Source: Chondrosia reniformis (lineage: Eukaryota; Porifera; Demospongiae; Chondrillida; Chondrillidae). From it: a stretch of DNA of 64,000 nt. This document shows, piece after piece, positions 28,399 through 55,096 of this stretch (positions within the stretch are counted from its first letter, which is position 1; the number at the start of each line of letters is the position of its first letter). The stretch lies in contig OX359192.1 in assembly GCA_947172415.1 (NCBI GenBank), forward strand, positions 2,482,501 to 2,546,500. Reading direction: 5' to 3'. The notes beneath the pieces were generated by a model. The model searched no databases, was not told the origin of the DNA, and was given only the letters and a program-made list of their open reading frames with translations. The position numbers were made by a program, and so were the translations under genes.

Positions 28399-31300
28399 TT
28401 ACAAGTTCATATAAGTTGGTTTATTTTCAATCTGATTCATCTCAATAGATACATAAGCAGGGTTCCTCTCCATGTCAACAGATATTGGTGGTCCTTTAGT
28501 ATCGTATTCATTCACTGTTTTATCTTGAAAGGAATACATTAAAATATAAGTCATGTAATGCTATTTCACTGATAGATATGCATTCTGTAACAGTTTAATA
28601 CCATACCTTGCTGTTGGTTCCTCTTACATCTGATCCAGCAACATCGACAAGTAATCACTGTGAAGACTATACATCCAATACATAGACCTACTACTGGACC
28701 AAATACAATCCAACCACTTGCTATGAGTAAAGATTTTAAACAGACGTACAGTGTATATAGAAGAAGAAAGTATTCGTAAAATAAACAAAAAAATTCATTA
28801 TAATAATTATAATAAATCAACTAAAATTTCACTCTTCGTAAGTGTACATGATGTTTAGTAGCTAATAGAAGATGTATCGATCCTCTTACATACATACTTA
28901 CTTAGGAATGCTCTATAACTTGCAATTGAAGTTGCATTAATTTACCTAATATAAAGTGAATACACTATTGAAGGTTTGATACACTTACGTGTTTCAGTTG
29001 TAGTACTTCTATTTGTTATTTCACTTCTAATATTTGGGTCTTCTCTACAATAAGCTCCAACTCCAATCTCATAAGATGTACCAGGAGTAAGACCTTCAAT
29101 AGTATAGGATGTTTCAGTAGTGGTTGTATTCCTCAAACTAGATTCATCTCCACTCTGTTGCCATGTTACCTCATACATGAAGGTACAGTTCTCAAAACAC
29201 TCATCACTGTGGGACCACATCAGTGAGATACTTGTATCAGAAGGGGTGGATGTGAGTGAGGTTGGAGGAAGGGGAGACTCTGAAGGAATGCCAACTATTG
29301 TTACATTAACACTAACTGTAACAGAAATATATATTCAATGTCTTACTCACCCCTAACTCTCACAGTCACTGGATCACTCTCCTCCATACTACCATCAGCA
29401 TACACAACAGAACAAGAGTAGTTAGCCTCTCCATTGAGGAAGACACTCTTTCTTGTTGTCACACTCACAACTGTTTCGGTGTTACTCTGGGATAAAACTA
29501 TATGGTATGTATCAGGTAGATCAATCCTCTCTCCATCCTTCATCCACACTACAGGACTGGTCTGACTGAAGATGGGTCCACGTGATGTACTATCAGTTAT
29601 ATCATGATGGTGACAGGTGAGTTGGACTTGTCTGTCATAACAGACTGGACCAGTTGAATTGAAAGTGATGGGTTTTTCTACAAACATACATATATTGGTA
29701 ATTCATACAGTGTACAGTATTAAGATTATTAGTACACAAACTTTATTACAATACACAAACCCTTACCAACAGTTGTAGAATTCATTGACAGTGGATCACT
29801 AACAACATCTTCATTTCCAACGCATTCAGCAGTTATGTTAACTATATAGCTCATATCACTCATCAATCCATCTATCATTACAGTATCATTGGAGAAGGAG
29901 CCATTCTGTAGTTGTGTCTCATCAGGTACTCCATTGATCACAGGATACCAGATTACATGATATTGGAAAGTGTGATGAGAATAACATTCCATATTTGGAT
30001 TGTGTTCCACTTCATATACAAGAACATTAGATTTAGGTTGTATTGCAATTACATTTGGAGATGGAACCTCTACATGGAGTGATGAAGTTTCAATTATATA
30101 TATTTATAAAGTAGTACTTATTAAAATAATTTATAAGATACAGAAATATATACATTAAATCATTACTGTTTTCACTTTAACCGATTTCAATGCAATATTT
30201 TGAAATATTTCACTGTGACAGTTGACAATTTAAAAGTATGCCTTCAATACAATACTTATAAATTGAAATTGAAACATTAACATAATATGTAAATCATAGG
30301 ATCCTCATCCTACAGTAATGCACGTATTTCACTTACCAACTACATTAATCATTACTTCACTACTGTAATCTCTAACTGATGTGCCAATATTTAGAGTATA
30401 ACATCTGTAGATCCACACTTTATCTGCAAAGTCATCTTTAGTTAGATGAATATTTAGTGTAGTGTAGGTTGATTCAAAATCAGTCAGAATATGTATTTCA
30501 GCAAAACTAGTCAGTCTTGTTCCATTTCTCTCCCAAAGTATCACAAGTGATCCATCATTAAAAGGATGAGTACATGTAATCCTTGATGTCTGACCAAGAC
30601 AGTACCGGTCATTATTGGAAGTGAGAGTTACAGCAGCATCACCTACAGAATATGCATATCAATATTGTATTGCATATAGTATATAAGTGATATATATGTA
30701 TCATAGAGTACGGTAGTACTCTATAAGTAGCGATGGCCGAAAAAAAACATGGCCGCCCTATTCAATGTATTATCAATTAACACCTCATAAATCAACAACG
30801 TTCAGATTTTCGGTTGCATTCGTGTGTTTGCAATCGTTTTTGCATGCTTTTCTAAACGCCAAAACATGTTACGATGCTCTACAACCTTCGCAAAGTGGTT
30901 AAACCGAAATAGGCCAAATTCTGCAATTCCTCATTTTTTCTTCTTCTTCTTCTTCTTATTCTTCTTTTTTCAAATGAACTAGCGCTAACATGCGAACTTA
31001 CGCAGGTACATACAAATACTAAATCGTCATGAATGTTTCCGAACTAGGGAATAGGCTACCCTAGATTTCAACGCGCTCCAACCGAAGCGTGTTACTTTTG
31101 AAAGTGCCAAATTTAGGGCCTCTTTGAACGCCATTTTTTAATTAAGTTTCAAATTCTCTGTATATAAAATAAGTAACCCGAATGAGTAATGTTTGTGGTA
31201 CTGCCGTTACCCGCGATCGAATTTCTTAGTCGCTTTGCAGGGCCTATATACAGTCGTATTCTTAACGATTATGGACCCTTTAATATCCTAAACTAAATGT

Positions 31301-32212
31301 TAAAGAACGGTAGAAAACATCTTATCAAATTTGGGATCTTTTCGGACGCCATTTTTTAATTTAGAGCTCTCTATTATATCGTCTATTCTGTTACTTTATT
31401 TCGAGTTTTCGCCAAGAAAACTTTCAAAACAAATATTAACAAGAAAAAAGGAGCAATACAAGTTAAATAAAAACATTCAAAAATGAAGTTAAAAGTAGGG
31501 ATGGCACTATAACAGTGATTGGCACATCTAGAAAAAGTAACGAAACAAGAAAGTGATCATATGGTAAGACTAACATTGCAGAAGTGGCATACTGAAACTT
31601 AACTATACACATCACTTCTATGTTTGGGCGCATCGATCCCTACTTCTAGTATATCCATGATGCGCCCAAACATAGAAGTGATGTGTATAGTTAAGTTTCA
31701 GTATGCCACTTCTGCAATGTTAGTCTTACCATATGATCACTTTCTTGTTTCGTTACTTTTTCTAGATGTGCCAATCACTGTTATAGTGCCATCCCTACTT
31801 TTAACTTCATTTTTGAATGTTTTTATTTAACTTATACTTATGCATTACCTACTTGTATCTGTAGTACACGATGTTTAATTAGTAATTCATTAGAATTTTA
31901 CATCATACTGAAGATGTATCATTTATACGTACCTTTAAATAATTGTCCAAAATGGAAATGCATAATTAAAATACAGCATATACGTATGTAGTTGCTTGTA
32001 ATCCAATATTGTACAGCTATATTCCAACAATAAATAATAAATATTAATTTATATATACAAAATAAATTTTATTTGCAAATAGCATTTCCCTCATTTAGAA
32101 AACTATGTGAAAAATTCCACATTCTTCTAGTTTGAAGCATAAAAGGTTCAATAGTAATAAAACACTCACCTAATGTGTTAATACACATCAGAATAAACAG
32201 CACAATCCTCAT
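28399..32212 (-). CDS. Ig-FN3-Ig-FN3 transmembrane receptor A
   Basis: Exons 32212..32170, 30642..30337, 30069..29767, 29677..29351, 29315..28989, 28720..28607, 28523..28399; 1,545 bases, 514 residues, no stop. Order: signal peptide MRIVLFILMCINTLG; V-set-like Ig (RYCLGQTSRITC ... VWIYRCYT); FN3 (HVIWYPVINGVPDE ... YIVNITAE); Ig (VQLTCHHHD ... NGEANYSC); FN3 (YEVTWQQSG ... SYEIGVGAYC); membrane helix; short tail. Each domain is one exon, all phase 1-1, ideal for shuffling. The tail has NEYDT, NPAYVSI and PTYMNL, giving an NPxY and YxxI-x10-YxxL. A 21-base deletion in exon 6 shortens the membrane segment compared with B and C. Intron 1 holds a hairpin element. Ligand unknown. Confidence 0.85.
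30702..31832 (+). mobile_element. Hairpin-ended element, copy 1 (receptor A intron 1)
   Basis: Left end C(A)TAGAGTACGGTAGTACTCT, itself a small palindrome; right end a 372-bp hairpin (31,461-31,832) with arms of about 170 bases. The empty site is visible in receptor B and C introns (GTGATA.GTA.GTATATACTTATG). TAT flanks both ends, consistent with a TA/TAT target. No protein is encoded. Right arm ends TTTATTTAACT. Confidence 0.8.
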
Positions 32213-34627
32213 TTTTGTTCTACATCCAGATCTATAAACAGAAAGAATATACACATAGTACAAAGTCAATAAAAATAATATAGTTTACAAAAGAACATGT
32301 AATTCAGGTTAATGTTAATCAATAATTCTGTTGGCAAAAACATGTATGTATTTGTAACAGTTAAAGTGTGATCTTGTCTGAGTATATATCAACGTCATGT
32401 ACATTGGGAGAGCCAGAAGCAAGCTCCTATTAAGGGTTCATAGGCTATGTGTTTGCATTTATATGTAATATATAGTTAGAGCCCAGGGCATGAATTCTAT
32501 CTGAAAATATTACGACATTGAGGCGTAGCCGAACCTGAGCAATTATATATACTTCACAAAAGTTCAGTGCGATGGGCTATAACTGGCTTGTACCCTATTG
32601 TTATGGCCATAAATCCTCTTTAGGACTGTAATTTGCTTTAAGTACATAGTCACTTCAGTTAAGTCTTAAAAAAAATTGTATATTTGTATACTGATACCTC
32701 ATAATAATTTAAATGTACACATTTTCATAGAAGTACAGTGGAACCTCCGAATAACAGACACGCTCGGACCCAACATCTTGTCTTTTATTAAGAGGTTGTC
32801 CTCTTCTCGGAGGTCGGCCCATAATCACGTGCACCATCTAAACAACTAATTGTGTAATAGCAACTAGCTACCAGTTATAGTAACACTATATTACGGCTCA
32901 TGATCATGAAATTATAAATATATATCCAAGAGATACAATAAATACACACCAACAAGTTATAGGAAGCTACAAACACTAACATTTGATTAACTTAACTAAT
33001 TCATGCAAGTCTTCTTTGTTATTCCTTATTCAGTGAATAATATCAGTTAGCTACTCCATAAACCGAATGAATTACTGATTCGTTCGGTTTATCGAGTGCA
33101 CACCTTTTGAAATTCAGAGGTTACGGTTTACGTATCTATACGTTTAAAATCCGGACCATACGAAATCGATCCTCAGAAGCAAGACTTCCTATTAGATTGT
33201 TAGGTTGGGTTTAGGACACCGCATGGATTAATCATTCGCTTAGAACAGGTTCAAGGCCGAATGTTACATTTTCAACACAATTCTGAAACATCTTGGAAAA
33301 TAACTCACTTTGCGTCCTCTTAATTTATACCTCTCTTTCAGGAAGCCGCGTATATAAGGCACTTGTACTCTGCAGTAACAGCTTGGTGACGTTACGTGTG
33401 GGAAAAAACAGAAAGATAGCGGTCTGGCTACGCTAGTCTTAATCCTTTCAATCAATTCATCTAAACTTTGGGTTTCAATGAGCTATGACTATTTTGCTAT
33501 TCCAATACTGCATTGTATAAAATGCTATAGAGTATTTACAGCATCTTAGAACCTTAATAAACTTCAGGTTAGAATTTTTGCTTGTCACATGATTTTGTGA
33601 AAGTGAATCCCGTGATCTTCCAATCAAGATGCCTGTTCACCAGGAATTTCCCTAATCATATCTTTGTGTGCAGTTTTAAGTTTGTGGCAGAGAGGTATAG
33701 GAAAGCATATATGTAGATGTTAATTTCTGTATATAATTACTTATATATACGCATGAATTCTGTCTTTCAAGTTCCTTTAGATGCCAGTCATGTAGACCTG
33801 TTTGATTGATAAGCAATTTCAATAGCTATAGTGTACACAATGTATTACCATGATAACTCTTTGATTCTGACTTATGTATTCTTACCTTTAAGTGAGAAAG
33901 TATATATATAGACAGTTCTATATTGTAGCCAATAAAAAGATAGTATATTTTAGTGTTACTATAGGCAGTGAATTCTAGTTATTAAATTCATTGGTTCATT
34001 CCACTATTTGTTACTAGGTAATGCATCTGACTGAACTTCCTAAAAATGTGTGTTATGGAGAGACATATATATCAGATAAACTGTTCACATCCTCCTCTGG
34101 GAGGGAACAGTGGATACCTGGTTGGTGTGTTCTGGAAGAGGAATGATATGGACTACACACCTAATGGAATAACTGAACTGACTGTTGTCAAATTCTAATG
34201 TGAGAGGTCTTCAGATCAATGTCATAAAAGGAGTGTATATGAACCTACAATTGCTTAATTGTGAGAATTGACACTTTTGATAGAGAAAACAGTAACAGTG
34301 TTTCAGCATTGTCGGTGAGTTTACTCTATATCTCTATATAATCTTATACAGTATATGCAACATTTATAAATGCTATTCCATGTTAAATTGATTGTGTATA
34401 TTTTTATGTCTTACTATTACTATGTATGTGTGGATAGTATACGCAATGGGTTCAAATATATAATAAATACAGGTGAACTAGCCAGTCCTGCTCAAATAGA
34501 ATTGTAATTTCACTTATTCTAACTTGGGATCAAAATCCCTCAGTGTGTTTTGAAGACTACATCTTCTCCTTCACCCTCTTATGGTGTACTGTTGAGAATG
34601 GAGTATACCTGATGTATCAACATGTAA
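32213..34627. other. Conserved unit spacer with MITE remnants
   Basis: This 2.4-kb stretch recurs in units B (43,757-46,600) and C (55,097-59,217). It carries CAGTGGAACCTCCGAATAAC at about 32,738, a pogo/Tigger-type terminus, and the hairpin AAACCGAATGAATTACTGATTCGTTCGGTTT at about 33,061. A 63-codon minus-strand open frame at 33,264-33,455 is broken by a deletion in unit C, so I do not call it a gene. Confidence 0.6.
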
Positions 34628-37132
34628 CTAAACTACTACATCCACTATTGACATTACACTATCTAACCTGGTTCCTAACACTACAGGTAGATTGTCACTA
34701 CCAGATACCTCTCCATTGGCATGGTCATCCAATAAGTCACTGTAGTCCTTGTGCCCACCAGCCTACATAGAGACATACGTATACAGCAGTATACAGGAGA
34801 GAAGATCCAAAAATATTCCATACATACGTACGTACATACATATAATCCAGAAATCCCTGAAACTGCTCATCTTAAGGCAAGCAATTTCAAAGTACGTAAT
34901 TAAGGCAAGCAATAAATAAACATGTCTGATCACAACCCATAATTCTAATTTTATATAAGGAAAATGGTAAGCATTCAAATAAACTGTACATAGCTTTGAC
35001 CAACTTTATATTGAAATTAGTGGACTGTAGAGAAACTGTAGAAATAACTACACCTGAGAAATCAAGTAAAACACTACACTCAAATCACCACCATTAGAAT
35101 AAAACTCAGGTTCACCAGTTTAGCCACCAGCTCTCAGCTATTGCACTCTGACCTACCACAACACCTCTGAATACAAACACACTACCTACAAACATACGTA
35201 CCTGTCCACAAGGGAGAGTCAGAAGGTCTCCGTCTTCATTAACTGGACTCTAAAGATGGAAGGGGCAGATTAATGACTCATCCAACAAAAGATATGCACT
35301 GAACACTATATTCCACACTAACAACACCCGATTAATCCATCTGCCCAAAATACCCCGACACGCTGAAAGTACATGTAACAATACCTTTCTGTAGTATTCT
35401 ACAGAGCTTCTAGAGACTTGTGAACTTTGGGTTCTCCGACAATAATATATTTACCAGAGCTTGTTTGGTCTATCATGTAATGACAACATCGCCCTGTCAC
35501 TCTAAAGTGGAGAAAACAATTATAAGCCAATAAACTACTCAAGTATACACACAAGTAACAACTGCTGACAGGTTACCATGACAACCAATATGCTATAATA
35601 CGTATATAGTGACATGCTTACTGCTGCCAATTTGCTTCAAGTGCCACAACAAGTAACAAGTGTACAAACAAACCTGAACGACAAGGTGTATCCAAATCTG
35701 GTCTCACTGACTCGAATCAAGAAGCAACCGTTTGGCTTATCTGTCAGCAGTTGTTCTGATTGACTGTAGAAAGAGAGTAAAATTCACTAAATATTTTGGT
35801 ACACACACTGCAAGAGAAAGAGATCTACATTAAACCGTACCGTCTACTGATAATGCCATGGAACCACTCTTTTATTGAGCCATTGTCATTCTTGATTGCA
35901 TCAGTTTGTGTTTCATTAAACAACCTCTTAGAAGCAGCTCTTCCAGCCTTACCATATTTCTTAAATCCAAAATTGGTTGTTCTAGTTCTGTTTGTTAGAG
36001 CACTATTACTTACACTATCACTATCATCAGATGAAGGAGGAGGTGTTGGTGACTTTGGAGGAGGAGGGGGAGGGGTTGGCTCTCTAGGGGGAGGGGTGGG
36101 CTCACGAGGTTCCGGTGGAATGATCTCTGATCAATGTAGAGAAAATATATATACACAATGCAAAGAGTTTGGATACAGATTGCTAATCTTAACCATCCAA
36201 AAGATTGTCTACCTATATACATATATATGTATGTATAAAAGAAGTAAATAATAGGAGACATAGCCTCCCAGGGTCACTGATAAAGTATGGAATTCACAGA
36301 AACAGTTGTCTGACACAGTGAAAAAGGAAGTATTGGTATGAAAATTTACTTTTCCAAAGCTCTGCAGGTTTACCCGAAGTAATTAAGATAAGGATTTCTT
36401 CTAATGATACTCTAATAGTCGAAAGATGATCCTTTTAAAAGATATCTATTTGTTGCTCACCTTTTGGCCGCTTCTCATCCTCAATGGTCATTTGCTTCTG
36501 TTTGTCAAAGAGACCCTGGGTTGGTGGTGATATTAGCTTAAGGAAATCAGTAATCATTTTAGCTTGCTGTTCAACTGCAAGCAGAAGCTTCTGAAACCTC
36601 TTACGAGCAATGAAACCATGAACAACTACAAGTTTAGAAATATTTAGAGACAGCGACAGTATATATATCTGAGCCTTATATATTTGTCACTTGAGAAGAC
36701 GATTGTTTGCACTAAGCACTGTATTAAAACAATAACTAAATAATTGCTAACACGACATCTCTACAGCGCTTAAGGAGAGATAGAGACGTGACTACTTACT
36801 CTTTTGAATATTTGCAGCGACTTTTTGTACTCTCTCAAGATGCTCCACCAGAATGTCTATGTGGAAGTACTTCAGAAACACTTTAGTTTTCCCAACTTGG
36901 AAACCTTGAAGGCCTGCCTTGACACATATCAGTTTGCAGTTGGCAGATGTTGGGGCCATACCAGGGTCAGCAGCAAGGAGCTTGTAACTGAACATGGAAA
37001 AAAGGAAGGAAAAGGATTATTTGGATTTGCTAAGAAGGAATGTCAACTTACCAATCAACAAACTCATCAAAGGGGATTCTCACAGCAAATCCCTCTCTCC
37101 TGATACGTGTAGTCTCCAACATACCAGTGTAC
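34628..37132 (-). pseudogene. Myosin-SH2 fusion gene, 3' part, frameshifted
   Basis: Exons 37132..37052, 36987..36800, 36625..36461, 36126..35841, 35763..35674, 35501..35455, 35433..35385, 35249..35202, 34762..34628. The first two give the end of a myosin motor: YTGMLETTRIRREGFAVR, PFDEFVD, GFQVGKTKVFLKYFHID. The third has an IQ motif (HGFIARKRFQKLL). The fourth is a proline-rich linker leading into an SH2 domain: WFHGIISRR, NGCFLIRVSE (the phosphotyrosine-binding Arg is present), GYTLSFR, HYMIDQ, HKSLEAL, LLTLPCGQ. Exon 35433..35385 is one base short: HKSLEAL runs into TAG, and the expected VEYYRK is in the next frame. The last exon reads across the duplication boundary at 34,684 to a chance stop. 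The motor N-terminus is not in the window. A truncated protein is still possible. Confidence 0.72.
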
Positions 37133-37189
37133 CTCAACATCAGAGCAAGACATACAAAAGGTTTGATGTACACAAATGAGTAAGCTTAC

Positions 37190-37346
37190 TCTCAGTTCAC
37201 GACTAGTTCTCACTGAAGGTCCTGAATATGTTGTCAAGCCCAATGGATTCATGTCAAAGCTCTTTACTATGTGATAATGGAACATCTTGGCATCTCTAAT
37301 CCTCTCACTCATTTCACTCAAAGTTAGTTCAGTAACGTGCATGTTC
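37190..37346 (-). CDS. Unidentified exon upstream of the myosin tail
   Basis: Bounded by TTACAG| and |GTAAGC, open throughout: MHVTELTLSEMSERIRDAKM, then FHYHIVKSFDMNPLGL. It ends in phase 0, whereas the next myosin exon needs a phase-2 donor, so the two do not join by simple splicing. I do not recognise the family. It could be a misplaced first exon or part of another gene. Confidence 0.35.
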
Positions 37347-37427
37347 TGTAATATTTTTTAGTGGAATCATACAAATGTTAAATGTTGCATACTTTGTACT
37401 ACATACGTAGTTGGTTGTAGGCCCGAA

Positions 37428-37854: not shown

Positions 37855-38512
37855 TTACCACTGACTTCCGTAGGTAGGGTCACCAATACCTTGAAGCATC
37901 TTGATGAATCTGACATCTTGGATCATCAGTGTTACACGCTTTGCGTGGATTGCAGCCAAGTTACTCACGGATAGAAAGTGTACAATGTACGCTTCTGTGG
38001 CTTCTTGAAGGCATTCAAGTGCATCTTTTTGCCATTTGAAGTCGCTTGCATGCGGATGTCTTTCTTGTAGGATCTGTCTTACTAATCTCGCAAATGGAGC
38101 TTTGCGAATTAGAAGGTGTGTCGTCTTTTGGAAGTGCCTGCAATAACAAATTAAGGTTATATGTAACATGCTTTACCAGCACTTGCAATCTTTAATAAGA
38201 AATATTTAACAATCACTATGAACAAGACAGTAACTAAGGAAATGACGCTGTCGTTAGCTATATCCTTCGCAAAACTAATCTCCGTTACACTCCGCGCTCC
38301 GCTATGTATGCAGGGCTATACAAAAATCCTAACTTTCTTCAATAGCTAGCCTACATCCACATTTAGTGTACAGCATAAACAAACCTGATTTCCTTCAACG
38401 CGACTGTACCCATGACCCGTCTCACTGTCTGCTCAGATCTCTTCTGTGGAGTACGACTTTTTCTTCTGGAAGATTTATTGCTTGTAGATCCCGATTCTTG
38501 AGTTCTAGGCAT
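37855..38512 (-). CDS. CENPA: Centromeric histone H3 variant (CENP-A/cenH3)
   Basis: Two exons, 38512..38385 and 38137..37855, 136 residues. Exon 1 is a basic tail ([20 protein letters not shown]) ending GTVALKEIR, as in H3. Exon 2 starts [20 protein letters not shown] and has the histone fold with CENP-A hallmarks: a loop 1 about three residues longer than H3 ([11 protein letters not shown]), Trp in [20 protein letters not shown] (H3 has RFQ), VHF where H3 has VGLF, and a C-terminal tail [11 protein letters not shown] in place of [15 protein letters not shown] is kept. The single intron sets it apart from intronless replication-dependent histones. Its role is to mark centromeric chromatin and recruit the kinetochore. 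Confidence 0.88.
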
Positions 38513-40311: not shown

Positions 40312-40344
40312 TTGAGTTAATAATTTTGAGATAGCAGTATTATT

Positions 40345-40874: not shown

Positions 40875-43756
40875 TTACAAGTTCATATAAGTTGGTTTAT
40901 CTTCAATCTGATTCATCTCAATAGATACATAAGCAGGGTTCCTCTCCATGTCAACAGATAATGTATCGTATTCATTCATTGTTTTATCTTGAAAGGAATA
41001 CATTAAAATATAAGTCATGTAATGCTATTTCACTGATAGATATATGCATTCTGTAACAGTTCAATACCATACCTTGCTGTTGGCACCTCTTACATCTGAT
41101 CCAGCAACATCGACAAGTAACGACAATCCCCACAATGATTATCACCGTGAAGACTATACATCCAATACATAGACCTACTATTGGACCAAATACAATCCAA
41201 CCACTTGGTACGAGTAAAGATTCTAAACAGACGTACAGTGTATATAGAAGAAGAAAGTGTTCATAAAATAAACATAAAATTTCATTCTAACAATTAATTG
41301 ACTATATAAACATGTTGTGTAGTAGCTAATAGAAGATGTATGGAAATATTTGGATCCTCTTACATATTAGTTTACTTACTATAAAAGTGAATACACTATT
41401 GAAAGTTTGATACACTTACGTGTTTCAGTTGTGGTACTTTTATTTGTTATTTTACTTCTAATATTTGGATCTTCCTTACAATAAGCTCCAACTCCAATCT
41501 CATAAGATGCACCAGGAGTAAGATTTTCAATAATATAGGATGTTTCAGTAGTGGTTGTATTCCTCAAACTAGATCCATCTCCACTCTGTTGCCATGATAC
41601 CTCATACATGAAGGTACAGTTTTCAAAACACTCATCACTGTGGGACCACATCAGGGAGATACTTGTATCAGAAGAGATGGGTGTGAGTGAGGTTGGAGGA
41701 AGGGGAGACTCTGAAGGAATGCCTACTATTGTTACATTAACACTAACTGTAACAGAAATATATATTCAATGTCTTACTCACCTCTAACTCTCACAGTCAC
41801 TGGATCACTCTCCTCCATACTACCATCAGCATACACAACAGCACTAGAGTAGTTAGCTTCTCCATTGAGGAAGACATTCTTTCTTGTTGTCACATTCACA
41901 ACTGTCTCAGTATTACTCTGTGATACAACCATATGGTATGTATCAGGTAGATCAATCCTCTCTCCATCATTCATCCACACTACGGGACTGGTCTGACTGA
42001 AGATGGGTCCACTTAATGTACTATCAGTTATATCATGATGGTGACAGGTGAGTTGGACTTGTCTGTCATAACAGACTGGACCAGGAGTTGAAAGGGAAGT
42101 GATGGGTTTTTCTACAAACATACGTATATAGGTAATTCATACAGTGTAAGTAATGAGAGTTCACTGATTAATTGCTTTCATTATTAACTTAATTAAAACA
42201 TTATATTACTTAAAAAAATATTAACTAAAACTGGGTGTGCTATGACAGTTTAATATACTTATGCATGTGTAAGGATATGTGCACAAAAGATAGATAAGGT
42301 TGGTGTAAAACTGTTGCAACTACGTATACATACAGGTTAAGCAAAGACCTGCCCCACAATACATTGCATTTATTGGTTTATGTTGACAAAGGCATGTGTC
42401 AGGTATAAATAAACAAATAAATTTCACCTTCACCATGCAATCCTTAATTCCAATATATTATCTTTTCCAAACTAACTTTACTCATAATAGCATACAGTAC
42501 GTAATCACTTTATTACAGTACACAAACCCTTACCAACAGTCATAGAATTCATTGACAATGGATCACTAACAACATCTTCATTTCCAACGCATTCAGCAGT
42601 TATGTTAACTTTATAGCTCATATCACTCATCAATCCATCTATCATTATAGTATCATTGGAGAAAGAACCATTCTGTCGTTGTGTCATATTAGCTACTCCA
42701 TTGATCACAGGATACCAGATCACATGATGTTGGAAAGTGTGATTAGAATAACATTCCATATTTGGAGTGTGTTCCACTTCATATACAAGAACATTAGATT
42801 TAGGTTGTATTGCAATTACATTTGGAGATGGAACCTCTACATGGAGTGATAAAGTTTCAATTATATTTATAAAGTAGTACTCATTAAAATAATTTATAAG
42901 ATACAGGAATATACATTATATCATTAATGTTTTCACTTTTCAATGCAATATTTTGAAATATTACACAGTTCAATTTTAGTGACAATTTAAAAGTATACCT
43001 TTAATACAATACTTATAGATTGAAATTGAAACATTAACATAAAATAAATAATAGGATCCTCATCCTATAGTAATGCACGTATTTCACTTACCAACTACAT
43101 TAATTATTACTTCACTACTGTAATCTTTAACTGATGTGTCAAGATTTTGAGTGTAACATCTGTAGATCCACACTTCATCTGCAAAGTCATCTTTAGTTAG
43201 ACGAATACTTAGTATAGTGTAGGTTGGTTCAGCATCAGTCAGACTATGCATTCCAGCAAAACTGTTCAGTCTCGTTCCATTTCTCTCCCAAAGTAACACA
43301 AGTGATTCATCAATAAAAGGATGAGTACATGTCAACCTTGATGTCTGACCAAGACAGTGACGGTCATTATTGGAAGTGAGAGTTACAGCAGCATCACCTA
43401 TATAGAGAATATGCATATCAATATTGTATTACGTATAGTGTATAAGTGATACGTACGTATATACATATGTATGACCTACATGTGTCTGTAGTACACGATG
43501 TTTAATTAGCAATTCATTGGAATTTTACATCATACTGAATTCAAAAATTGTCCAAAATGGAAAATACATAATTAAAATATATAGGTAGTTGTTTGTAAAT
43601 ATATAATTGTACTATTATACAAAATAAATTTTATTTGCAAATATAATTTCCCTCATTCAGGAAACTAAAGAAAAACATTCCATATTCTTCTGAATAGTAT
43701 ATAAATCACTCACCTAATGTGTTAATACACATCAGAATAAACAGCACAATCCTCAT
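40875..43756 (-). CDS. Ig-FN3-Ig-FN3 transmembrane receptor B
   Basis: Exons 43756..43714, 43397..43092, 42836..42534, 42111..41782, 41746..41420, 41222..41073, 40987..40875; 1,572 bases, 523 residues, open. Same domains as receptor A, and the tail ends NPAYVSI ... PTYMNL. The old 3' splice site of the membrane exon has changed from TAG|CAAG to TAC|CAAG and cannot work. A new AG exists exactly 15 bases upstream (CTGTTTAG|AATC) where A and C have TTAA. Using it adds five residues (QSLLV) and keeps frame. The tail lacks four residues of GPPI found in A and C. Ig domain 2 has one extra codon. Confidence 0.83.
42122..42533. other. Receptor B intron between FN3-1 and Ig-2
   Basis: No exon seen. 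It contains about 300 bases (GCTATGACAGTTTAATA to CAGTACGTAATCACTTTATT) shared with receptor C (53,440-53,815) but absent from receptor A, whose intron is only 89 bases: a deletion in A or an insertion in the ancestor of B and C. Confidence 0.6.
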
Positions 43757-46599
43757 TTTAGTTCTCTTTGAATCTAGACCTATAAACAGAAAGAATGTAC
43801 GTATGTTGGTACGTAGACTAGTACAAAGACAATAAAAATAATAGTTTACAAAAGAACATGTAATTCAGGCTAATGTTAATCAATAATTCTGTTGGCAAAA
43901 ACATGTATGTATTTGTAACAGTTAAAGTGTGATCTTGTCTGAGTATATATCAACGTCATGTACATTGGGAGAGCCAGAAGCAAGCTCCTATTAAGGGTTC
44001 ATAGGCTATGTGTTTGCATTTATATGTAATATATAGTTAGAGCCCAGGGCATGAATTCTATCTGAAAATATTACGACACTGAGGCGTAGCCAAACCTGAG
44101 CAATTATATATACCTCAACAAAATTCCAAGGCGATGGGCTATAACTGGCTTGTACCCTATTGTTATGGCCATAAATCCTCTTTAGGACTGTAATTTGCTT
44201 TAAGTACATAGTCACTTCAGTTAAGTCTTAAAAATTGTATATTTGTATAGACCTCTAATTCACGGATACCTCATAATAATTTAAATGTACACATTTCATA
44301 GAAGTACAGGAACCTCCGAATAACAGACACGCTCGGACCCAACATCTTGTCTTTTATTAAGAGGTTGTCCTCTTCTCGGAGGTCGGCCCATAATCACGTG
44401 CACCATCTAAACAACTAATTGTGTAATAGCAACTAGCTACCAGTTATAGTAACATGCACTATATTACGGCTCATGATCATGAAATTATAAATATATATCC
44501 AAGAGATACAATAAATACACACCAACAAGTTATAGGAAGCTACAAACACTAACATTTGATTAACTTAACTAATTCATGCAAGTCTTCTTTGTTATTCGTT
44601 ATTCAGTGAATAATATCAGTTAACTACTCCATAAACCGAATGAATTACTAATTCGTTCGGTTTATCGAGTGCACACCTTCGGTTTTTGAAATTCAGAGGT
44701 TACGGTTTACGTATGTATACGTTTAAAATCCGGACCATACGAAATCGATTCCTCAGAAGCAAGACTTCCTATTAGATGGTTAGGTTGGGTTTAGGACACC
44801 ACATGGATTAATCTTTCGCTTAGACCAAACTGTAACAGGTTCAAGGCCGAATGTTACATTTTCAACACAATTCTGAAACATCTTGGAAAATAACTCACTT
44901 AGCGTCCTCTTAATTTATACCTCTCTTTCAGGAAGCCGCGTATATAAGGCACTTGTACTCTGCAGTAACAGCTTGGTGACGTTACGTGTGGGAAAAAAAC
45001 AGAAAGATAGCGGCTGGCTACGCTAGTCTTAATCTTTTCAATCAATTCATCTAAACTTTGGGTTTCAATGAGCTATGACTATTTTGCTATTCCAATACTG
45101 CATTGTATAAAATGCTATATATAGTGTATTTACAGCATCTTAGAACCTTGATAAACTTAATTTCAGGTTAGAATTTTTGCTTGTCACATGACTTTGTGAA
45201 AGTGAATCAAGATGCCTGTTCACCAGGAATTTCCCTAATCATATCTTTGTGTGCAGTTTTAAGTTTGTGGCAGAGAGGTATAGGAAAGCATATACGTAGA
45301 TGTATATAATTACTTATACGCATGAATTCTGTCTTTCAATTTCCTTTAGATGCAAGTCATGTAGACCTGTTTAATTGATAAGCAACTTCAATAGCTATAG
45401 TGTACACAATGTATTACCATGATAACTCTTTGATTCTGACTTATGTATTCTTACCTTTAAGTGAGAAAGTATATATATAGACAGTTCTATATTGTAGCCA
45501 ATAAAGAGTATAGTATATTTTAGTGTTACTATAGGTAGTGATAAGATATACATAATATAATTCTAGTTAAATTCATTTGTTCATTCCACTATTTGTTACT
45601 AGGTAATGCATCTGACTGAACTTTCTAAAAATGTGTGTTATGGAGAGACATATATATATACATATATACATATATACATATATATCAGATAAACTGTTCA
45701 CATCCTCCTCTGGGAGGGAACAGTGGATACCTGGTTGGTGTGTTCTGGAAAAGGAATGACATGGACTACACACCTAATGGAACATAAATTCTAATGTGAG
45801 AGGTCTTCAGATCAATGTCATAAAAGGAGTGTATATGAACCTACAATTGCTTAATTGTGAGAATTGACACTTTTGATAGAGAAAACAGTAACAGTGTTTC
45901 AGCATTGTCGGTGAGTTTACTCTATATCTCTATATAATCTTATACAGTATATGCAACATTTATAAATGCTATTCCATGTTATATATATTATTATTATGAT
46001 TATGTATATATGTCTTACTATTACTATGTATGTATGGATAGTATAAATACAGGTGAACTAGCCAGTCCTACTCAAATAGAATTGTAATTTCAATTATTCT
46101 AACTTGGGATCAAAATCCCTCAGTGTGTTTTGAAGACTACACCTTCTCCTTCACCATCTCATGGTGTACTGTTGAGAATGGAGTATACATGATGTATCAT
46201 CATGTAACTCAACTACTACATCCACCACTGACATTACACAATCTAACCTGGTTCCTAACACTACATGTCAAGTTAACATTAGAGTACAGAGTGTGGAAAA
46301 TAGAACTCTCAGATGTGATAAAGTGGAGATGGAAGTTACTACACTTGGCAAGTTCTGCTACTGATAATGTATCATTTGTAAAAAATGTCTTTTCAATGTA
46401 TACATCACATTTTACAGAAGTATTTTTATCCAAAACGACGCTTTATACGGAAGTGGACCAATATTCCAAGCCCGGACCAATATTATCAGGAAAAAAGTAT
46501 CCTGGCCGACCATATTTTTCAGGAAAATTGGTTCCCAAGACCTTTTTTTGGCGGGCCAAAATTTCCGTGACAGGACATTATACGGTAACCAGTTAGAAA
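43757..46599. other. Unit B spacer
   Basis: Shared with units A and C. Holds the pogo-like terminus (about 44,310) and AAACCGAATGAATTACTAATTCGTTCGGTTT foldback (about 44,634). A 157-codon plus-strand open frame at 46,123-46,596 is also open, with a different end, in unit C (58,751-59,188). Its antisense has NVNLTCSVRN, faintly Ig-like. Neither strand has enough support to be called a gene. Confidence 0.45.
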
Positions 46600-47607: not shown

Positions 47608-47663
47608 TATATTTATTAATATATATAAAAGGACAAGTGTTGCACTAAAATGTAACTTTTTGC

Positions 47664-48004
47664 CTATAGATCCAACTTGTTCTTAGTCAAGATATCCAGT
47701 CTGTTACATATGACAGACAAGTCCAACTCATCTGCCACCATCATGATATAAATGATACAACATCAATTGGACCCATCTTCAGTCAGACCAGTCCTGTAGT
47801 GTGGATGAAGAATTCGAATGGAGAGAGGATTGATCTACCTGACACATACCATATGGTTGTATCCCAGAGTAATACTGAGACAGTTGTAAGTGTGACAACA
47901 AGAAAGAGTGTCTTCCTCAATGAAGAGGCTAACTACTCTTGTGCTTTTGTGTATGCTGATGGTAGTATGGAGGAGAGTGATCCAGTGACTGTGAGAGCTA
48001 GGGT
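47664..48004 (+). CDS. Stray Ig-domain exon on the plus strand, unit B
   Basis: Inverted relative of receptor exon 4: YDRQVQLICHHHDIN, GPIFSQTSPVVWM, GERIDLPDTYHMVVSQSNTE, NEEANYSCAFVYADGSMEES. It is open from the acceptor at about 47,669 to a GTGAG donor near 48,002. It follows the Rab stop by about 60 bases, with no signal peptide or membrane exon nearby. It is either a leftover exon from an inverted receptor copy or an exon used by some unseen transcript. Unit C has the same exon with lesions. Confidence 0.5.
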
Positions 48005-48182
48005 GAGTTTTTCATGTGAAAATATATACATTGTACGTACGTACATATATATATGCTAAGACAGTTAATTGCATTGAGCCGTGCAAAGGCCATATATGAT
48101 GAATGGCATAATACGTTCCAGTAAATATTTGCTTATCATCATAGCCTTTGCATGTCATTATAATGTATAATCTTTTGTGAAG

Positions 48183-49276: not shown

Positions 49277-49900
49277 AATCTTTATTTTCCCCTTTTGTGT
49301 GACTGTGTGTTTGAGTGTGTGTGTTCCTGTAGGGTGTGTTTAAGCCTATTTATACACAATCATTATATAGCCATAATTATTTGTTGCATGGTAAAGCGTT
49401 TAAACATAAGAAGCAGGATGCTTGTACAGTATAGATGATAAAGATCATAATGGTTAGTCTAACTCCACAAGCTCACATAAACCTACAGAATGATTGATCC
49501 TTTGTATCCTATATAAGCTCATTTCTAAGTGCCCCTGCTATGCATCCTTATAATTAGTATGGTTAGTATACATGCTACCTTTATGAATAACATAAGCAAT
49601 GATCTGTGTATTTTATATGACATTTTATATACATGTCTCTAACTCTCACAGTCACAGGTTCACTCCATACTACCATCAGCATACACACAAGCACAGTTAG
49701 CTTTGAAATTCTCCATTAATTGAGGAAGACAAAACTGTCTCAGTACAATGTAATATTGTAATACACAATTGAAATATAATAAAAACATACGTATAGGAAT
49801 ATATTGATATACAGTATAATTAATTAAATGAGGACTATACTAAAGTCTTATATAGTCATTATTATAGGTATTTCAGGAAATACAAAGTAGAATATTGGGT
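49277..49900. other. CYP20 downstream spacer, unit B
   Basis: Near copy of 25,586-26,220. Contains the Ig-exon scrap at about 49,635-49,745 and nothing else recognisable. Confidence 0.6.
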
Positions 49901-49913
49901 AGATCTGGAAAGT

Positions 49914-50205
49914 ATGTATTCAGAATCCATCAATGAAATTTCATCTCTATACGTTAACATGATTTCCACCTCCAAATCCATACCAATTGCAATATGCACT
50001 GTATGTGATCATGTCCTTGAAGGTAGAGTCCATTCAAATGTGATGCAAGGCAACTTTTATACCACCAAGCTCCCTGACAGCTTTCAGCACAATTTCCATT
50101 ACTGGCATCGTTCTCTCTGTCATAAGTACTAAAAGGACTTCCATTATGATATTCTAATTTGTCAACTATATATATACATTGAGGAGTTATATTTTTGATT
50201 AGTAT
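49914..50205 (-). pseudogene. FReD C-terminal exon relic, unit B
   Basis: Minus-strand frame FSTYDRENDASNGNCAESCQ, then GAWWYKSCLASHLNGLY, which keeps the CAxxxxGAWWYxxC core deleted from the unit A copy. A frameshift follows before YCNWYGFGGGNHV. It is cut by the hairpin element at 50,206. Confidence 0.75.
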
Positions 50206-51166
50206 CAGAGAGTACGGTAGTACTCTCTAAGTATGGATGACCCGAAAAAAAATGGATGCCGTATTCAATGTATTACGGGCACCTTATAAGTAGGCAGCGA
50301 ATGCGTTTTTACCTCTTTTAAACTCATAATGTGTTTTTTGTAGGATTTCAATTGAGGGAAGCTGTTTTCAAGAGCGCATAAAGGCTCCAAGTTTGTAAAA
50401 CGGTTTCAGGCCTACTTCCGGTTTTCCTCATTTTCTTATTCTTATTCTTATTCTTATTAATATTCTTATTCTTATTCTTCCTTTTATTTCACGCTAGTGC
50501 ATAAACGCGCTTGTAGATAAATACATTTTAGGGGCATATCGTCTAAAAGTTTTAGCAACTAGGGAATAGGCACCTTTCTGTCTTCAAACGATTTGTGCAA
50601 AGACGGTTTTCTGTGGCGCGTAAGCAGATTGGAACCTTTTTGTCGCCATTTTCTAATTAGGAGTTCTTGGTCATCTCCTGATTGCCTTCGACTACGACGT
50701 TATATTTCGAGTTTTGGCCAAAAAAATTACAAAACTAATTTTAATAAGTATATAACATTACAAAAAAAGAAGGAATACAAGTAAATAAAAACATTTAAAA
50801 AATGAAATGAGAAGTAGGGATGGCAGTCCCTGCAACAGTACCTATCACATCCAGAAAAAGTAACAAAACAAGAAAGTGATCATATGGTAAGGCTAATATT
50901 GCAGAAGTGGCATACTGAAACTTATAATTAACTATACACATCACTTCTATGTTTGGGCGCATCGATCCCTACTTCTAGTATATCCATGATGCGCCCAAAC
51001 ATAGAAGTGATGTGTATAGTTAAGTTTCAGTATGCCACTTCTGCAATGTTAGCCTTACTATATGATCACTTTCTTGTTTCGTTACTTTTTCTAGATGTGA
51101 TAGGTACTGTTGCAGGGACTGCCATCCCTACTTCTCATTTCATTTTTTAAATGTTTTTATTTACTT
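50206..51166 (+). mobile_element. Hairpin-ended element, copy 2
   Basis: Left terminus CAGAGAGTACGGTAGTACTC at 50,206; right hairpin 50,779-51,166. It contains a TTCTTA microsatellite at about 50,430-50,480. Its flanks (GATTAGTAT and TATTCTGTGTTGACTG) correspond to unit A positions about 26,410 and 27,595, so about 1.2 kb of fibrinogen gene is missing here. Confidence 0.8.
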
Positions 51167-51170
51167 TATA

Positions 51171-51760
51171 TTCTGTGTTGACTGACCATTCCTGGTATGG
51201 TGTTAACTAAGTCAATGAGTTGACACACTTTGTCCTTCAGCATCAGAACCTCGATCCTGGGTTGAATTGTCACAGCAGAGGTCATTGGTTGAACCAGGTT
51301 GACCAGAGAGGACTGGAATGTACCACATCCTACTGTCCCCCACATTAGCAGGACTAGCAGTCGGTGTAGCTGTATACAATTGTAGAAGACACATGCAGTC
51401 CTAGTGGGATAATGTTAAGTGGAGACTGAAGTATACTTTGTAATTATTTCCCCATAGTTACTTATATATGGAAATTTAGGCCTTTTAATTATTCTCATAC
51501 AATTACCCATACTTTATTAATGGGTGCCTATAGCTATAATAGCCAATGGCTAAAGGCCTCGAACTCCCCAGTCTAAATACTTTACTTGATTTGACTTGAT
51601 GAAGATGAATTTGTGTATACGTATAGTGTTTGCTAATGCTGTAAGGAAACACTGCATGTGCGCAGTGTTGCTTAGAGTAATACAGAAAAACAAAGCTCCT
51701 AACATGATTATAAGAGCTGGAAATACGTATTATGGAATACAAAATGTCCATTATAATAAG
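51171..51760 (-). pseudogene. FReD 5' exons relic, unit C
   Basis: 51,200-51,400 repeats the coiled-coil exon (CQLIDLVNTIPGM, TVGCGTFQSSLVNL). About 51,700-51,655 repeats the signal-anchor exon with LGALFFCITLS. The intervening coiled-coil and FReD exons are gone. Confidence 0.65.
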
Positions 51761-51985
51761 GTTAGACTGTATATCTTTGTATTTAGATAATTCTTAAACA
51801 ATGCCTTGATTATATATCAATGTCATGCTAACAGTCAAAGAATGCAAATCTATATAATTAATATAATAATACAAATAAAGAAACAGAGAAAAACTATTTT
51901 AGGTTAACTTAATATATCAGTGTGAATTTCCTATGTACGTATATATACTTCATTAGCTTATAAGATGACAATATTATTGTTAGTT

Positions 51986-54900
51986 TTACAAGTTCATATA
52001 AGTTGGTTTATCTTCAATCTGATTCATCTCAATAGATACATAAGCAGGGTTCCTCTCCATGTCAACAGATATTGGTGGTCCTTTAGCATCGTATTCATTT
52101 ATTGTTTTATCTTGAAAGGAATACATTAAAATATAAGTCATGTAATGCTATTTTACTGATAGATATGTATGCATTCTGTAACAGTTCAATACCATACCTT
52201 GCTGTTGGCTCCTCTTACATCTGATCCAGCAACATGGACAAGTAACGACAATCACCATAATGATTATCACTGTGAAGACTATACATCCAATACATAGACC
52301 TACTACTGGACCAAATACAATCCAACCACTTGCTACGAGTAAAGATTTTAAACAGACGTACAGTGTATATAGAAGAAGAAAGTATTCGTAAAATAAACAT
52401 TAAATTTCATTCTAATAATTATAAGAAATCAACTAAAATTTCATATGATGTTTAGTAGCTAATAGAAGATGTATGGATCCTCTTACATACATACTTACTT
52501 ATAATATCTATAACTTGAAGTTGCATTAATTTACCTAATAAAAAGTGAATACACTATTGAAGGTTTGATACACTTACGTGGTTTAGTTGTAGTACTTCTA
52601 TATATATTTGTTATTTCACTTCTAATACTTCGATTTTCCTTACAATAAGCTCCAACTCCAATCTCATAAGATGCACCAGGAGTAAGACCTTCAATAGTGT
52701 AGGATGTCTCAGTAATGGTTATATTCCTCAAACTAGATCCATCTCTACTCTGTTGCCATGTTACCTCATACATGAAGATACAGTTCTCAAAACACTCATC
52801 ACTGTGGGACCACATCAGGGAGATACTTGTATCAGAGGGGATGGATATGAGTGAGGTTGGAGGAAGAAGAGATTCGAAAGAAATCTCAGCTGAAAAATAA
52901 AGATTTACTGTTGATAGGATTATTTACTTAAATGTACAATGTATTTTCACATGAAAACTCACCTAGGCCTCTAACTCTCACAGTCACAGGTTCACTCTTC
53001 TCCATACTACCATCAGCATACACAACAGCACAAGAGTAGTTAGCCTCTCCATTGAGAAAGACACTCTTTCTTGTTGTCACACTTACAACTGTTTTGGTGT
53101 TACTCTGTGATACAACCATATGGTATGTATCAGGTAGATCAATCCTCTCTCCATCTTTCATCCACACTACAGGACTGGTCTTATTGAAGATGGGTCCACT
53201 TGATGTACTATCAGTTATATCATGATGGTGACAGGTGAGTTGGACTTGTCTGTCATAACAGACGGGACCAGTTGAATTGAAAGTGATGGGTTTTTCTACA
53301 AACATACATATATTGGTAATTCATACAGTGTACAGTAATTAGATTATTATCAACAACACTTTTTTCATAATTATGTATTCACTAGGGCAAGCCTGAGCAA
53401 ACGGAAAGGAGAGGACTGCAGGAGGACTGTGAAGTAGGAGAGAGTTTACTGATCAATTGCTTTCATTATTAACTTTATTAAAAAATTATATTAAATAAAA
53501 AATATTAATTGAAACTGGGGTGTGCTATGATAGTTTAATACTTATGCATGTGTATTAAAGTAAGTATGTGTACAAAAGATAGATAAGGTTGGTGTAAAAC
53601 TGTTGCAACTACGCATACATACAGGTTAAGCAAAGACCTGCCCCACAATACATTTCATTTATTGGTTTATGTTGACAAAGGCATATGTCAGGTATAAATA
53701 AACAAATAAATTTCACCTTTACCATGCAATCCTTAATTCCAATATATTATCTTTTCCAAACTAACATTATACTCATAATAGCATACAGTACGTAATCACT
53801 TTATTACAGTACACAAACCCTTACCAACAGTCATAGAATTCATTGACAGTGGATCACTAACAACATCTTCATTTCCAACGCATTCAGCAGTTATGTTAAC
53901 TATATAGCTCATATCACTCATCAATCCATCTATTATTACAGTATTATTGGAGAAGGAACCATTCTCTAGTTGTGTCTCATCAGGGACTCCACTGATCACA
54001 GGATACCAGATTACGTGATATTGGAAAGTGTGATGAGAATAACATTCCATATTTGGATTGTGTTCCACTTTATATACAAGAACATTAGATTTAGGTTGTA
54101 TTGCAACTACATTTGGAGATGGAACCTCTACATGGAGTGATGAAGTTTCAATTATAAAGTAGTACTCATTAAAATAATTTATAAGATACAGAAATATATA
54201 CATTAAATCATTACTGTTTTCACTTTAACTGATTTCAATGCAATGTTGAAATATTTCACAGTTGACAATTTAAAAGTATGCCTTCAATACAATACTTATA
54301 AATTGAAATTGAAACATTAACATAAATCATAGGATCCATATCCTACAGTAATGCACATAATTCACTTACCAACTACATTAATCATTACTTCAGTACTGTA
54401 ATCTCTAACTGATGTGTCAAGATTTTGAGTGTAACATCTGTAGATCCACACTTTATCCGCAAAGTCATCTTTAGATAGATGAATATTTAGTGTAGTGTAG
54501 GTGAATTCAACATCAGTCAGACTATGTATTCCAGCAAATCTAGTCAATCTTGTTCCATTTCTCTCCCAAAATACCACAAATGATCCATCATTAAAAGGAT
54601 GAGTACATGTCAACCTTGATGTCTGACCAAGACAGTACGGGTCATTATTGGAAGTGAGAGTTACAGCAGTATCACCTACAGCATATGCATATCAATATTG
54701 TTTTGCATGTACGTAGTATATAAGTGATATGTATGTATATACTTATGTATTACCTACATGTATCTGTAGTACACGATGTTTAATTAGTAATTCATTGGAA
54801 TTTTACATCATATTGAAGATGTGTCATTTATACGTACCTTTAAATAATTGTCCAAAATGGAAATGCATAATTAAAATACAGTATATACGTAAGTAACAGC

Positions 54901-55096
54901 TATATTCCAACAATAAATAATAAATATTCATTTATATATACAAAATAAATTTTATTTGCAAATAGCATTTCCCTCATTTAGGAAACTATGTGAAAAATTC
55001 CACATTCTTCTAGTTTGAAGCATAAAAGGTTCAATAGTAAATAAAACACTCACCTGATGTGTTAATACACATCAGAATAAACAGCACAATCCTCAT
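51986..55096 (-). CDS. Ig-FN3-Ig-FN3 transmembrane receptor C
   Basis: Exons 55096..55054, 54675..54370, 54127..53825, 53295..52963, 52889..52578, 52332..52198, 52110..51986; 1,557 bases, 518 residues, open. Same architecture as A and B. Exon 5 starts differently (AEISFESLLPPTS instead of VSVNVTIVGIPSES), after a different acceptor, so a short stretch there was replaced. Ig-2 ends VRVRGLG. FN3-2 has an inserted TATATA (NIYRS). The membrane exon keeps the 21 bases lost in A and the original CGTAG|CAAG acceptor lost in B. Tail: NEYDA, NPAYVSI, PTYMNL. Confidence 0.85.

What the first reader, a model, noticed from the sequence alone, without database searches (positions are those of the whole stretch)
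28399..55096. Three tandem, intact Ig-FN3-Ig-FN3 receptors in a decaying duplicated array
Units A, B and C carry five gene types, but only the receptors stay open over 514, 523 and 518 codons; every Rab, CYP20 and fibrinogen copy in units B and C is broken. That contrast points to selection on the receptors. Amino-acid differences cluster in the Ig and FN3 exons, while signal peptide and tail barely change. Each domain is one phase-1 exon. A clustered, diversified Ig receptor family with signalling tails in a sponge-like genome resembles allorecognition or immune receptor clusters.
Basis: partly seen in the sequence, partly recalled or inferred. Interest (0 to 1): 0.85.

Follow-up and report, generated by a model that had tools for sequence, protein, structure and literature searches.

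The report
Sponge modular immunoglobulin receptor gene family
The three receptor genes are real, but they are a small outpost of a large family of cell-surface receptors in a sponge whose outermost immunoglobulin domain is the most variable part, while the part near the membrane and an apparent signalling tail stay nearly constant.

Summary
The three receptors exist at the stated coordinates (514, 518 or 523, and 518 codons; phase-1 domain exons). The genome matches Chondrosia reniformis odChoReni1.1. They are not a lone array: related exons are spread over C1 between about 7.7 and 9.46 Mb, and tail matches at E 1e-4 or better lie on eight further contigs. A fetched 200 kb of C1 holds about 33 receptor loci of three architectures.

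In all three types distal Ig1 has higher pN/pS than proximal Ig2 (1.33/0.97/0.84 against 0.41/0.38/0.39). Plus-type Ig1 variation sits in BC, C'-E and FG segments. Tails end in Y-x-x-I-x10-Y-x-x-L, ITAM-like. Adjacent exons of one gene differ several-fold in synonymous divergence from the window gene, one Ig2 module carries different Ig1 types, and exon trees conflict: domain modules are exchanged.

Best reading: a germline-diversified, ITAM-type self/non-self receptor family. Allorecognition is possible but untested; expression and polymorphism could not be checked. Corrections: each unit also holds a decayed second receptor; receptor B has lost an Ig2 cysteine and a splice acceptor.

The parts
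32170..32212 (-). receptor A, exon 1: start codon and signal peptide
30337..30642 (-). receptor A, distal Ig1 exon
   Evidence: Pfam ig 20.5 bits, just under its 21.8 cut-off
29767..30069 (-). receptor A, FN3-1 exon
   Evidence: Pfam fn3 finds two stretches in the protein
29351..29677 (-). receptor A, proximal Ig2 exon; this module recurs genome-wide
28989..29315 (-). receptor A, FN3-2 exon
   Evidence: Pfam fn3 E 1.4e-12 (protein 7)
28607..28720 (-). receptor A, TM exon, 21 nt shorter than in B and C
28399..28523 (-). receptor A, tail with YVSI-x10-YMNL and stop
43714..43756 (-). receptor B, exon 1
43092..43397 (-). receptor B, Ig1 exon
42534..42836 (-). receptor B, FN3-1 exon
41782..42111 (-). 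receptor B, Ig2 exon; F-strand cysteine replaced by serine
41420..41746 (-). receptor B, FN3-2 exon
41073..41222 (-). receptor B, TM exon if the AG 15 nt upstream is used; the border shared with A and C (exon start 41207) is preceded by AC
40875..40987 (-). receptor B, tail with an in-frame deletion; ITAM-like motif kept
55054..55096 (-). receptor C, exon 1
54370..54675 (-). receptor C, Ig1 exon
53825..54127 (-). receptor C, FN3-1 exon
52963..53295 (-). receptor C, Ig2 exon
   Evidence: the C protein passes the Pfam ig cut-off
52578..52889 (-). receptor C, FN3-2 exon with a different start from A and B
52198..52332 (-). receptor C, TM exon
51986..52110 (-). receptor C, tail
34027..34238 (+). 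unit A: decayed Ig1 of a second receptor type (the C1 minus type), in broken frames
45692..45834 (+). unit B: decayed Ig1 of the second receptor type, in broken frames
58253..58447 (+). unit C: decayed Ig1 of the second receptor type, with stops
47695..48027 (+). unit B: inverted copy of the window-type Ig2 exon, frame open; not shown to belong to the decayed receptor
60310..60636 (+). unit C: inverted, broken copy of the window-type Ig2 exon

Best explanation
Receptors A, B and C are type-I membrane proteins of a large, clustered, modular Ig/FN3 family in the sponge Chondrosia reniformis. The distal Ig1 domain probably contacts a variable partner through its BC, C'-E and FG loops. The proximal Ig2 and FN3 domains are a shared stalk. 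The tail carries a two-tyrosine ITAM-like motif that, once phosphorylated, would recruit SH2 proteins. Diversity comes from tandem duplication, point changes in Ig1 loops, and exchange of exon-sized modules (gene conversion or unequal crossing-over between phase-1 exons), which puts different distal domains on the same signalling chassis. The likeliest job is self/non-self recognition: microbes, conspecific tissue, or both. Shown: architecture, copy number as a lower bound, distal/proximal contrast, mosaic history, tail conservation. Inferred: binding by the loops, tyrosine phosphorylation, and the immune role.
For: Gene structure. Family size, lower bounds: 109 places with receptor A (84 of 623 candidates scored), 150 with window Ig1 (150 of 158 scored; the weakest may be unrelated Ig domains), 63 of 80 tail places at E 1e-4 or better. 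Ig1 above Ig2 in pN/pS in 3939, 3994 and 3971 of 4000 bootstraps for window, plus and minus types. Mean amino-acid identity in the two C1 types: Ig1 0.77/0.78, Ig2 0.92/0.92. Plus-type Ig1: CDR-like segments 1.02 bits against 0.32 for opposite-end loops, 0 of 10,000 permutations as large. Module exchange: window A against L012 dS 0.93 (Ig1), 1.43 (FN1), 0.15 (Ig2), 0.21 (FN2); one Ig2 module with three kinds of Ig1; FN1 class is a clade at 100/100 but AU rejects the same split for Ig1 (p 0.004) and Ig2 (p 0.003). Both tail tyrosines are kept in 35 of 35 aligned C1 tails (35 of 40 tail hits were aligned).
Against: No Ig1 interval lies above 1 (0.69-3.77, 0.75-1.24, 0.59-1.22). My site test finds 4 of 106 Ig1p codons above posterior 0.9, but also 4 of 92 in Ig2p; 1 of 104 in Ig1m, 0 of 95 in Ig2m. 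Plus-type tail pN/pS is 0.86 at dS 0.036, so within a type tail sameness may be recent homogenisation. FN2 of the minus type has 0.91. The ITAM spacer is 10, outside the 6-8 of the classic motif (recalled). A Syk-like kinase was not identified. No expression or polymorphism data. Loops were placed by sequence after the profile was seen; the Ig1 model is weak (pLDDT 56). B lacks an Ig2 cysteine.
Confidence: 0.6

Rival explanations
1. Cell-adhesion or tissue-sorting receptors: a Dscam- or contactin-like recognition family used in reaggregation and development, with no immune role.
For: Ig and FN3 mixtures are typical of adhesion molecules; phmmer matches of the FN3-2 domain include tenascin-R, RPTP-F and Dscam, beside Eph receptors and designed FN3 proteins. 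Sponge IgSF proteins are described as mainly adhesive (passages of PMC11999971).
Against: The aligned C1 tails keep a paired-tyrosine motif (35 of 35), and plus-type Ig1 variation is concentrated in a few segments of one domain, which a general adhesive role does not require.
Confidence: 0.2
2. Relaxed expansion: tandem duplication and gene conversion multiply copies under weak constraint; loop variation marks tolerated sites rather than selected ones.
For: Ig1 pN/pS is about 1, not clearly above it. Only 4 of 8 full minus-type genes have all tested exons clean, against 15 of 16 full plus-type genes (automatic splice search, tail and signal peptide not tested). The window holds decayed copies.
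Against: Frame is kept in A-C against neutral expectation; Ig2 pN/pS is 0.38-0.41 in three gene types; motif tyrosines are kept in 35 of 35 aligned tails.
Confidence: 0.15

Closest known systems
Hydractinia Alr family in the allorecognition complex
   Same: Clustered family of single-pass IgSF receptors with many likely pseudogenes, polymorphic extracellular part and ITAM/ITIM-type motifs (at least 41 loci; passages of PMC11067881, PMC11999971 and PMC12065747).
   Different: Here FN3 domains alternate with Ig (Alr is recalled to have none), the proximal modules are nearly constant and exchanged between genes, and I noticed no ITIM in the tails read (not searched for systematically). No sequence comparison with Alr was possible.
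Botryllus fuhc-linked receptors with ITIM and hemITAM motifs
   Same: Diverse receptors of an allorecognition locus joined to ITAM/ITIM signalling (passages of PMC12065747).
   Different: Different architecture; chordate; function supported by experiment there, by sequence alone here.
Sponge aggregation factors
   Same: The molecules discussed for sponge recognition (reference in PMC12065747; passage of PMC11999971).
   Different: Those are an extracellular proteoglycan complex; these are Ig/FN3 membrane receptors with tyrosine tails.
Geodia cydonium Ig-domain receptor tyrosine kinase and adhesion molecule
   Same: Sponge membrane proteins with Ig-like domains (mentions in PMC12018476 and PMC11999971).
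   Different: The Geodia receptor is a receptor tyrosine kinase; these genes end in a tail of about 40 residues, and here there are scores of copies.
Oyster CgIgIT2
   Same: Invertebrate Ig receptor with TM and ITAM that binds microbes (passage of PMC11999971).
   Different: Five extracellular Ig domains; the passage describes one protein, with no FN3 and no modular cluster.

Membership tests
Immunoglobulin superfamily | Ig-fold domain with two Cys and core Trp | tested here: met
   Pfam ig passes its cut-off in C (23.0 against 21.8 bits) and is just below in A (20.5); Cys-Trp-YxC pattern in window Ig1. The C1 Ig exons score below the cut-offs. B Ig2 lacks one Cys.
Fibronectin type III proteins | FN3 domains over the curated cut-off | tested here: met
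   PF00041 55.7 bits in A, 47.9 in C, two stretches each, cut-off 25; of the C1 FN1 exons tried, the plus type passes (27.5) and the minus type does not (23.3)
ITAM receptors | YxxL/I, spacer, YxxL/I in the cytoplasmic tail | tested here: inconclusive
   YxPI-x10-YxNL in 34 of 35 aligned C1 tails; the other ends YVN before its stop. Spacer 10, against 6-8 in the classic motif (recalled)
ITAM receptors | signals through a tandem-SH2 kinase (Syk type) | tested here: inconclusive
   102 SH2 places at E 0.01 or better; neighbouring SH2 pairs exist but I tied none to a Syk-type kinase (134 of 1104 kinase candidates scored)
Hydractinia Alr family | sequence homology to Alr1/Alr2 | not testable with these tools
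Allorecognition receptors | polymorphism that predicts fusion or rejection | not testable with these tools
   one primary haplotype; no grafts
Receptor tyrosine kinases / RPTPs | cytoplasmic kinase or phosphatase domain | tested here: not met
   tail is about 40 residues, then a stop; no such Pfam match in A or C
Sponge aggregation factors | Calx-beta / aggregation-factor-specific domains (recalled) | tested here: not met
   no such Pfam match in A or C

The most novel reading that the evidence does not exclude
This is a sponge counterpart of a histocompatibility complex: scores of ITAM-tailed receptors in which germline exchange of whole domain exons combines variable distal Ig domains, diversified at CDR-like loops, with shared signalling chassis, partly organised as head-to-head receptor pairs, and which governs self/non-self decisions. 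ITAM-type recognition by Ig receptors would then be found in the phylum Porifera.
Probability: 0.25. Interest if true: 0.93.

Novelty: new variant of a known kind. Interest (0 to 1): 0.74.

Why it matters
The receptors behind sponge self/non-self recognition are unsettled; the review passages I read say the candidate molecules of sponges, cnidarians and ascidians are not conserved between them, while cnidarian and tunicate candidates share ITAM/ITIM motifs (PMC12065747). A large sponge Ig receptor family with ITAM-like tails and CDR-like variability gives a concrete candidate list, on chromosomes of a public assembly with RNA reads and an alternate haplotype. It also shows a way to make receptor diversity without somatic rearrangement: trading phase-1 domain exons between paralogues.

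Tried and rejected
Syk: SH2 and kinase searches did not tie a tandem-SH2 pair to a Syk-type kinase. Mobile-element dispersal of the Ig2-FN2 module: block borders, in gene-A coordinates, differ between gene types (2865-3283 in five minus-type stretches; about 2617-2652 to 3207-3289 in others), which fits conversion tracts better than one mobile unit; I did not search for target-site duplications. Free exon shuffling at every position: too strong, because FN1 class II is found in 9 of the 10 plus-type genes that stand head to head with a minus-type gene, and in no other. The minus-type signal peptide is only a candidate; one copy has a stop, and an in-frame alternative exists in the Ig1 ORF. Paralogues as uncollapsed alleles: rejected for A-C, which are in tandem on one contig at 5.6-8.0% exon divergence, though the species seems very heterozygous (k-mer completeness of the primary assembly 69%). 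Such a family in print: searches of open PMC papers; from titles and starts of abstracts none listed described it. Papers on sponge immune repertoires in those listings, such as PMC12723187, were not opened, and subscription papers are mostly not held.
Full report
WHERE IT IS. The window is C4:2482501-2546500 of a 117,379,552-base genome in 15 contigs. Contig C1 is 10,409,357 bases. The Chondrosia reniformis assembly odChoReni1.1 has 117.37 Mb, 14 chromosomes plus a mitochondrion and a longest scaffold of 10.41 Mb (passages of PMC12181767), so I take the window to be from this demosponge. That is an inference from size and contig numbers; no marker gene was compared.

THE OBSERVATION. Spliced models of the three minus-strand genes are open: A 514, B 518 (523 with the acceptor 15 nt upstream) and C 518 codons, with one domain per phase-1 exon. 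B has lost the AG that A and C have before the TM exon; an AG upstream, absent from A and C, would keep the frame. B has also lost the second cysteine of Ig2. Exon gaps are in frame except one 2-nt gap at the divergent Ig2/FN2 junction of C; intron gaps are mostly out of frame: 25 of 29 for A-B, 13 of 18 for A-C, 27 of 32 for B-C. Substitutions alone would leave 374, 95, 69 and 26 of 2000 simulated copies intact after 45, 86, 96 and 124 changes; the last three are the observed pairwise exon differences. The receptors are therefore most likely maintained. However, each unit also contains remnants of a second receptor on the plus strand, of the type that is the 'minus type' on C1, broken in all three units. 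The P450 copies in B and C lack their 5' part and C has a frameshift in the last exon; fibrinogen-C pieces in A and B pass the Pfam cut-off and Ras-like pieces are sub-threshold. I did not test each neighbouring gene copy for intactness.

THE FAMILY. A search of the own genome with receptor A gave 109 places (84 of 623 candidates scored, so a lower bound); with window Ig1 150 places on 10 contigs (150 of 158 scored; the weakest may be unrelated Ig domains); with a C1 Ig1 consensus 150 (150 of 177 scored); with the tail 80, of which 63 at E 1e-4 or better, on 9 contigs; with the C1 TM exon 84. Most lie on C1 between 7.7 and 9.46 Mb, with gaps. I fetched C1:9260001-9460000. In it I find three gene types: plus-type Ig-FN3-Ig-TM-tail, 20 loci with at least four of the five modules, 16 of them full and 15 of these with all tested exons clean; minus-type Ig-FN3-Ig-FN3-TM-tail, 10 loci, 8 full and 4 of these clean; and three window-type loci. 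'Clean' means that an automatic search found AG and GT in phase 1 without a stop; tails and signal peptides were not tested, and a miss can be the search's fault. Isolated tails also occur. Each of the ten minus-type genes has a plus-type gene head to head; in the nine with an Ig1 hit the two Ig1 hits are 800-902 bp apart.

DISTAL VARIABLE, PROXIMAL CONSTANT. Pooled pN/pS with codon-bootstrap intervals: window Ig1 1.33 (0.69-3.77), FN1 0.71 (0.31-2.17), Ig2 0.41 (0.20-0.91), FN2 0.73 (0.39-1.51); plus type Ig1 0.97 (0.75-1.24), Ig2 0.38 (0.22-0.66); minus type Ig1 0.84 (0.59-1.22), FN1 0.49 (0.31-0.77), Ig2 0.39 (0.23-0.67), FN2 0.91 (0.43-2.51). Ig1 exceeds Ig2 in 3939, 3994 and 3971 of 4000 bootstraps. 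The C1 sets are hits that passed a length filter and had no stop: 19, 18, 9 and 10 sequences for Ig1p, Ig2p, Ig1m and Ig2m. Against a simple story: plus-type tails have 0.86 at a dS of only 0.036 and plus-type FN1 0.74 over two classes, and no Ig1 interval excludes 1. A grid-based site test of my own gave 4 of 106 Ig1p codons with posterior above 0.9 (31, 62, 88, 90), but also 4 of 92 in Ig2p, where 16 sites were constrained; Ig1m gave 1 and Ig2m none. I do not rest the case on it. The distribution of variation is clearer: in Ig1p, BC, C'-E and FG segments average 1.02 bits against 0.32 for AB and EF loops and 0.44 for strands, with 0 of 10,000 permutations as large. Segment borders were placed by sequence anchors (Cys23, Trp36, Cys81) after I had seen the entropy profile, so this is descriptive; Ig1m looks similar by eye, and the A-C differences in the window are more scattered, neither tested.

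MODULE EXCHANGE. Compared with receptor A, the gene at C1:8.89 Mb (L012) has dS 0.93 in Ig1, 1.43 in FN1, 0.15 in Ig2, 0.21 in FN2 and 0.99 in the tail. Five minus-type stretches have 0.10-0.13 in FN2, 0.40-0.53 in Ig2 and saturated values in FN1. Constraint on the protein is not expected to lower synonymous divergence several-fold in one exon of a gene, so the exons have different histories. The contrast is weaker in the closest relatives: the three C1 window-type genes have dS 0.12-0.14 in Ig1, 0.26-0.31 in FN1 and 0.11-0.17 in Ig2 and FN2. Of 53 single-exon Ig2 places (9 multi-exon rows left out) 9 have a window-like Ig1 upstream, three of them A-C themselves, 12 a C1 plus-type Ig1 (at least 60% identity), 22 another Ig1 and 10 none found (with one row added by hand). 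At C4:2572422, 26 kb beyond the window, a window-type chassis carries an 88% plus-type Ig1. In the plus type the FN1 exon falls into two classes (within 0.87 and 0.91, between 0.50) although Ig1, Ig2, TM and tail are not split by class. The FN1 tree separates the classes at 100/100, while the same split is rejected for Ig1 (16 rows, AU p 0.004) and Ig2 (15 rows, AU p 0.003); in the Ig1 tree the label is still more clustered than in most shuffles (12 of 500 as low), in Ig2 it is not (113 of 500). Gene 9304243 has the candidate leader of class II (9 of 17 plus genes share it) but FN1 of class I, so it looks like a natural chimera.

THE TAIL. Of 40 tail hits in the C1 stretch, 35 were aligned (left out: three of window-type genes, one of 14 and one of 24 residues). 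All 35 keep both tyrosines; 34 read YxPI-x10-YxNL and one ends YVN before its stop. The window tails read YVSI-x10-YMNL. From window A to the minus type, tail dN is about 0.07 and dS about 0.40 over 25 codons, which suggests constraint over the longer distance. The layout matches an ITAM except for its spacer of 10; classic ITAMs have 6-8 (recalled). A Syk-type kinase was not identified.

MECHANISM. Shown by sequence: architecture, family, contrast of domains, mosaic history, paired tyrosines. Inferred: ligand binding by the Ig1 loops, phosphorylation of the tail, recruitment of SH2 proteins, and a self/non-self role. The system works like cnidarian Alr and tunicate co-receptors in these respects; membership in either family is not claimed, and homology to Alr could not be tested. 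Whether the partners are microbes or other sponges is open. Papers were seen as search listings and passages only, none in full.

Noticed in passing
window 37855-38172 (-), with a likely N-terminal exon near 38.3-38.5 kb: Histone-fold exon (PF00125, E 2e-22) that looks to me like a diverged, possibly centromeric, H3 variant; the label is my reading.
   Followed up: partly
window 35670-37103 (-): SH2-like exon (24.8 bits, over the Pfam cut-off, C4:2518170-2518262) beside exons that resemble a myosin neck by eye; Pfam gave no match for two of these exons. Similar SH2-like exons recur at C4:2744076, 2756679 and 3002069.
   Followed up: partly
C1:9301468-9439473 (in L033-L046): Ten of ten minus-type receptors sit head to head with a plus-type receptor, 800-902 bp between Ig1 hits in the nine that have one: possible co-regulated receptor pairs.
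   Followed up: partly
window 55247-56515 (+): 422-codon open frame with a weak, sub-threshold reverse-transcriptase match, in a stretch of unit C that has no counterpart at that place in A or B.
   Followed up: partly
window 4439-5699: Long tandem-repeat block, open in several frames on both strands.
   Followed up: no
G000:C9:1355380-1356363 and C9:1359696-1360658: Two neighbouring open frames (395 and 355 codons) that each hold three SH2 matches.
   Followed up: no
G000:C14:0.59-1.14 Mb and C9:5.03-5.30 Mb: Dense arrays of kinase domains in open frames of roughly 250-390 codons.
   Followed up: no
window 18297-20431 and 23267-25592: Two tandem cytochrome P450 genes with shared exons, next to truncated copies at 48166 and 60819.
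   Followed up: partly
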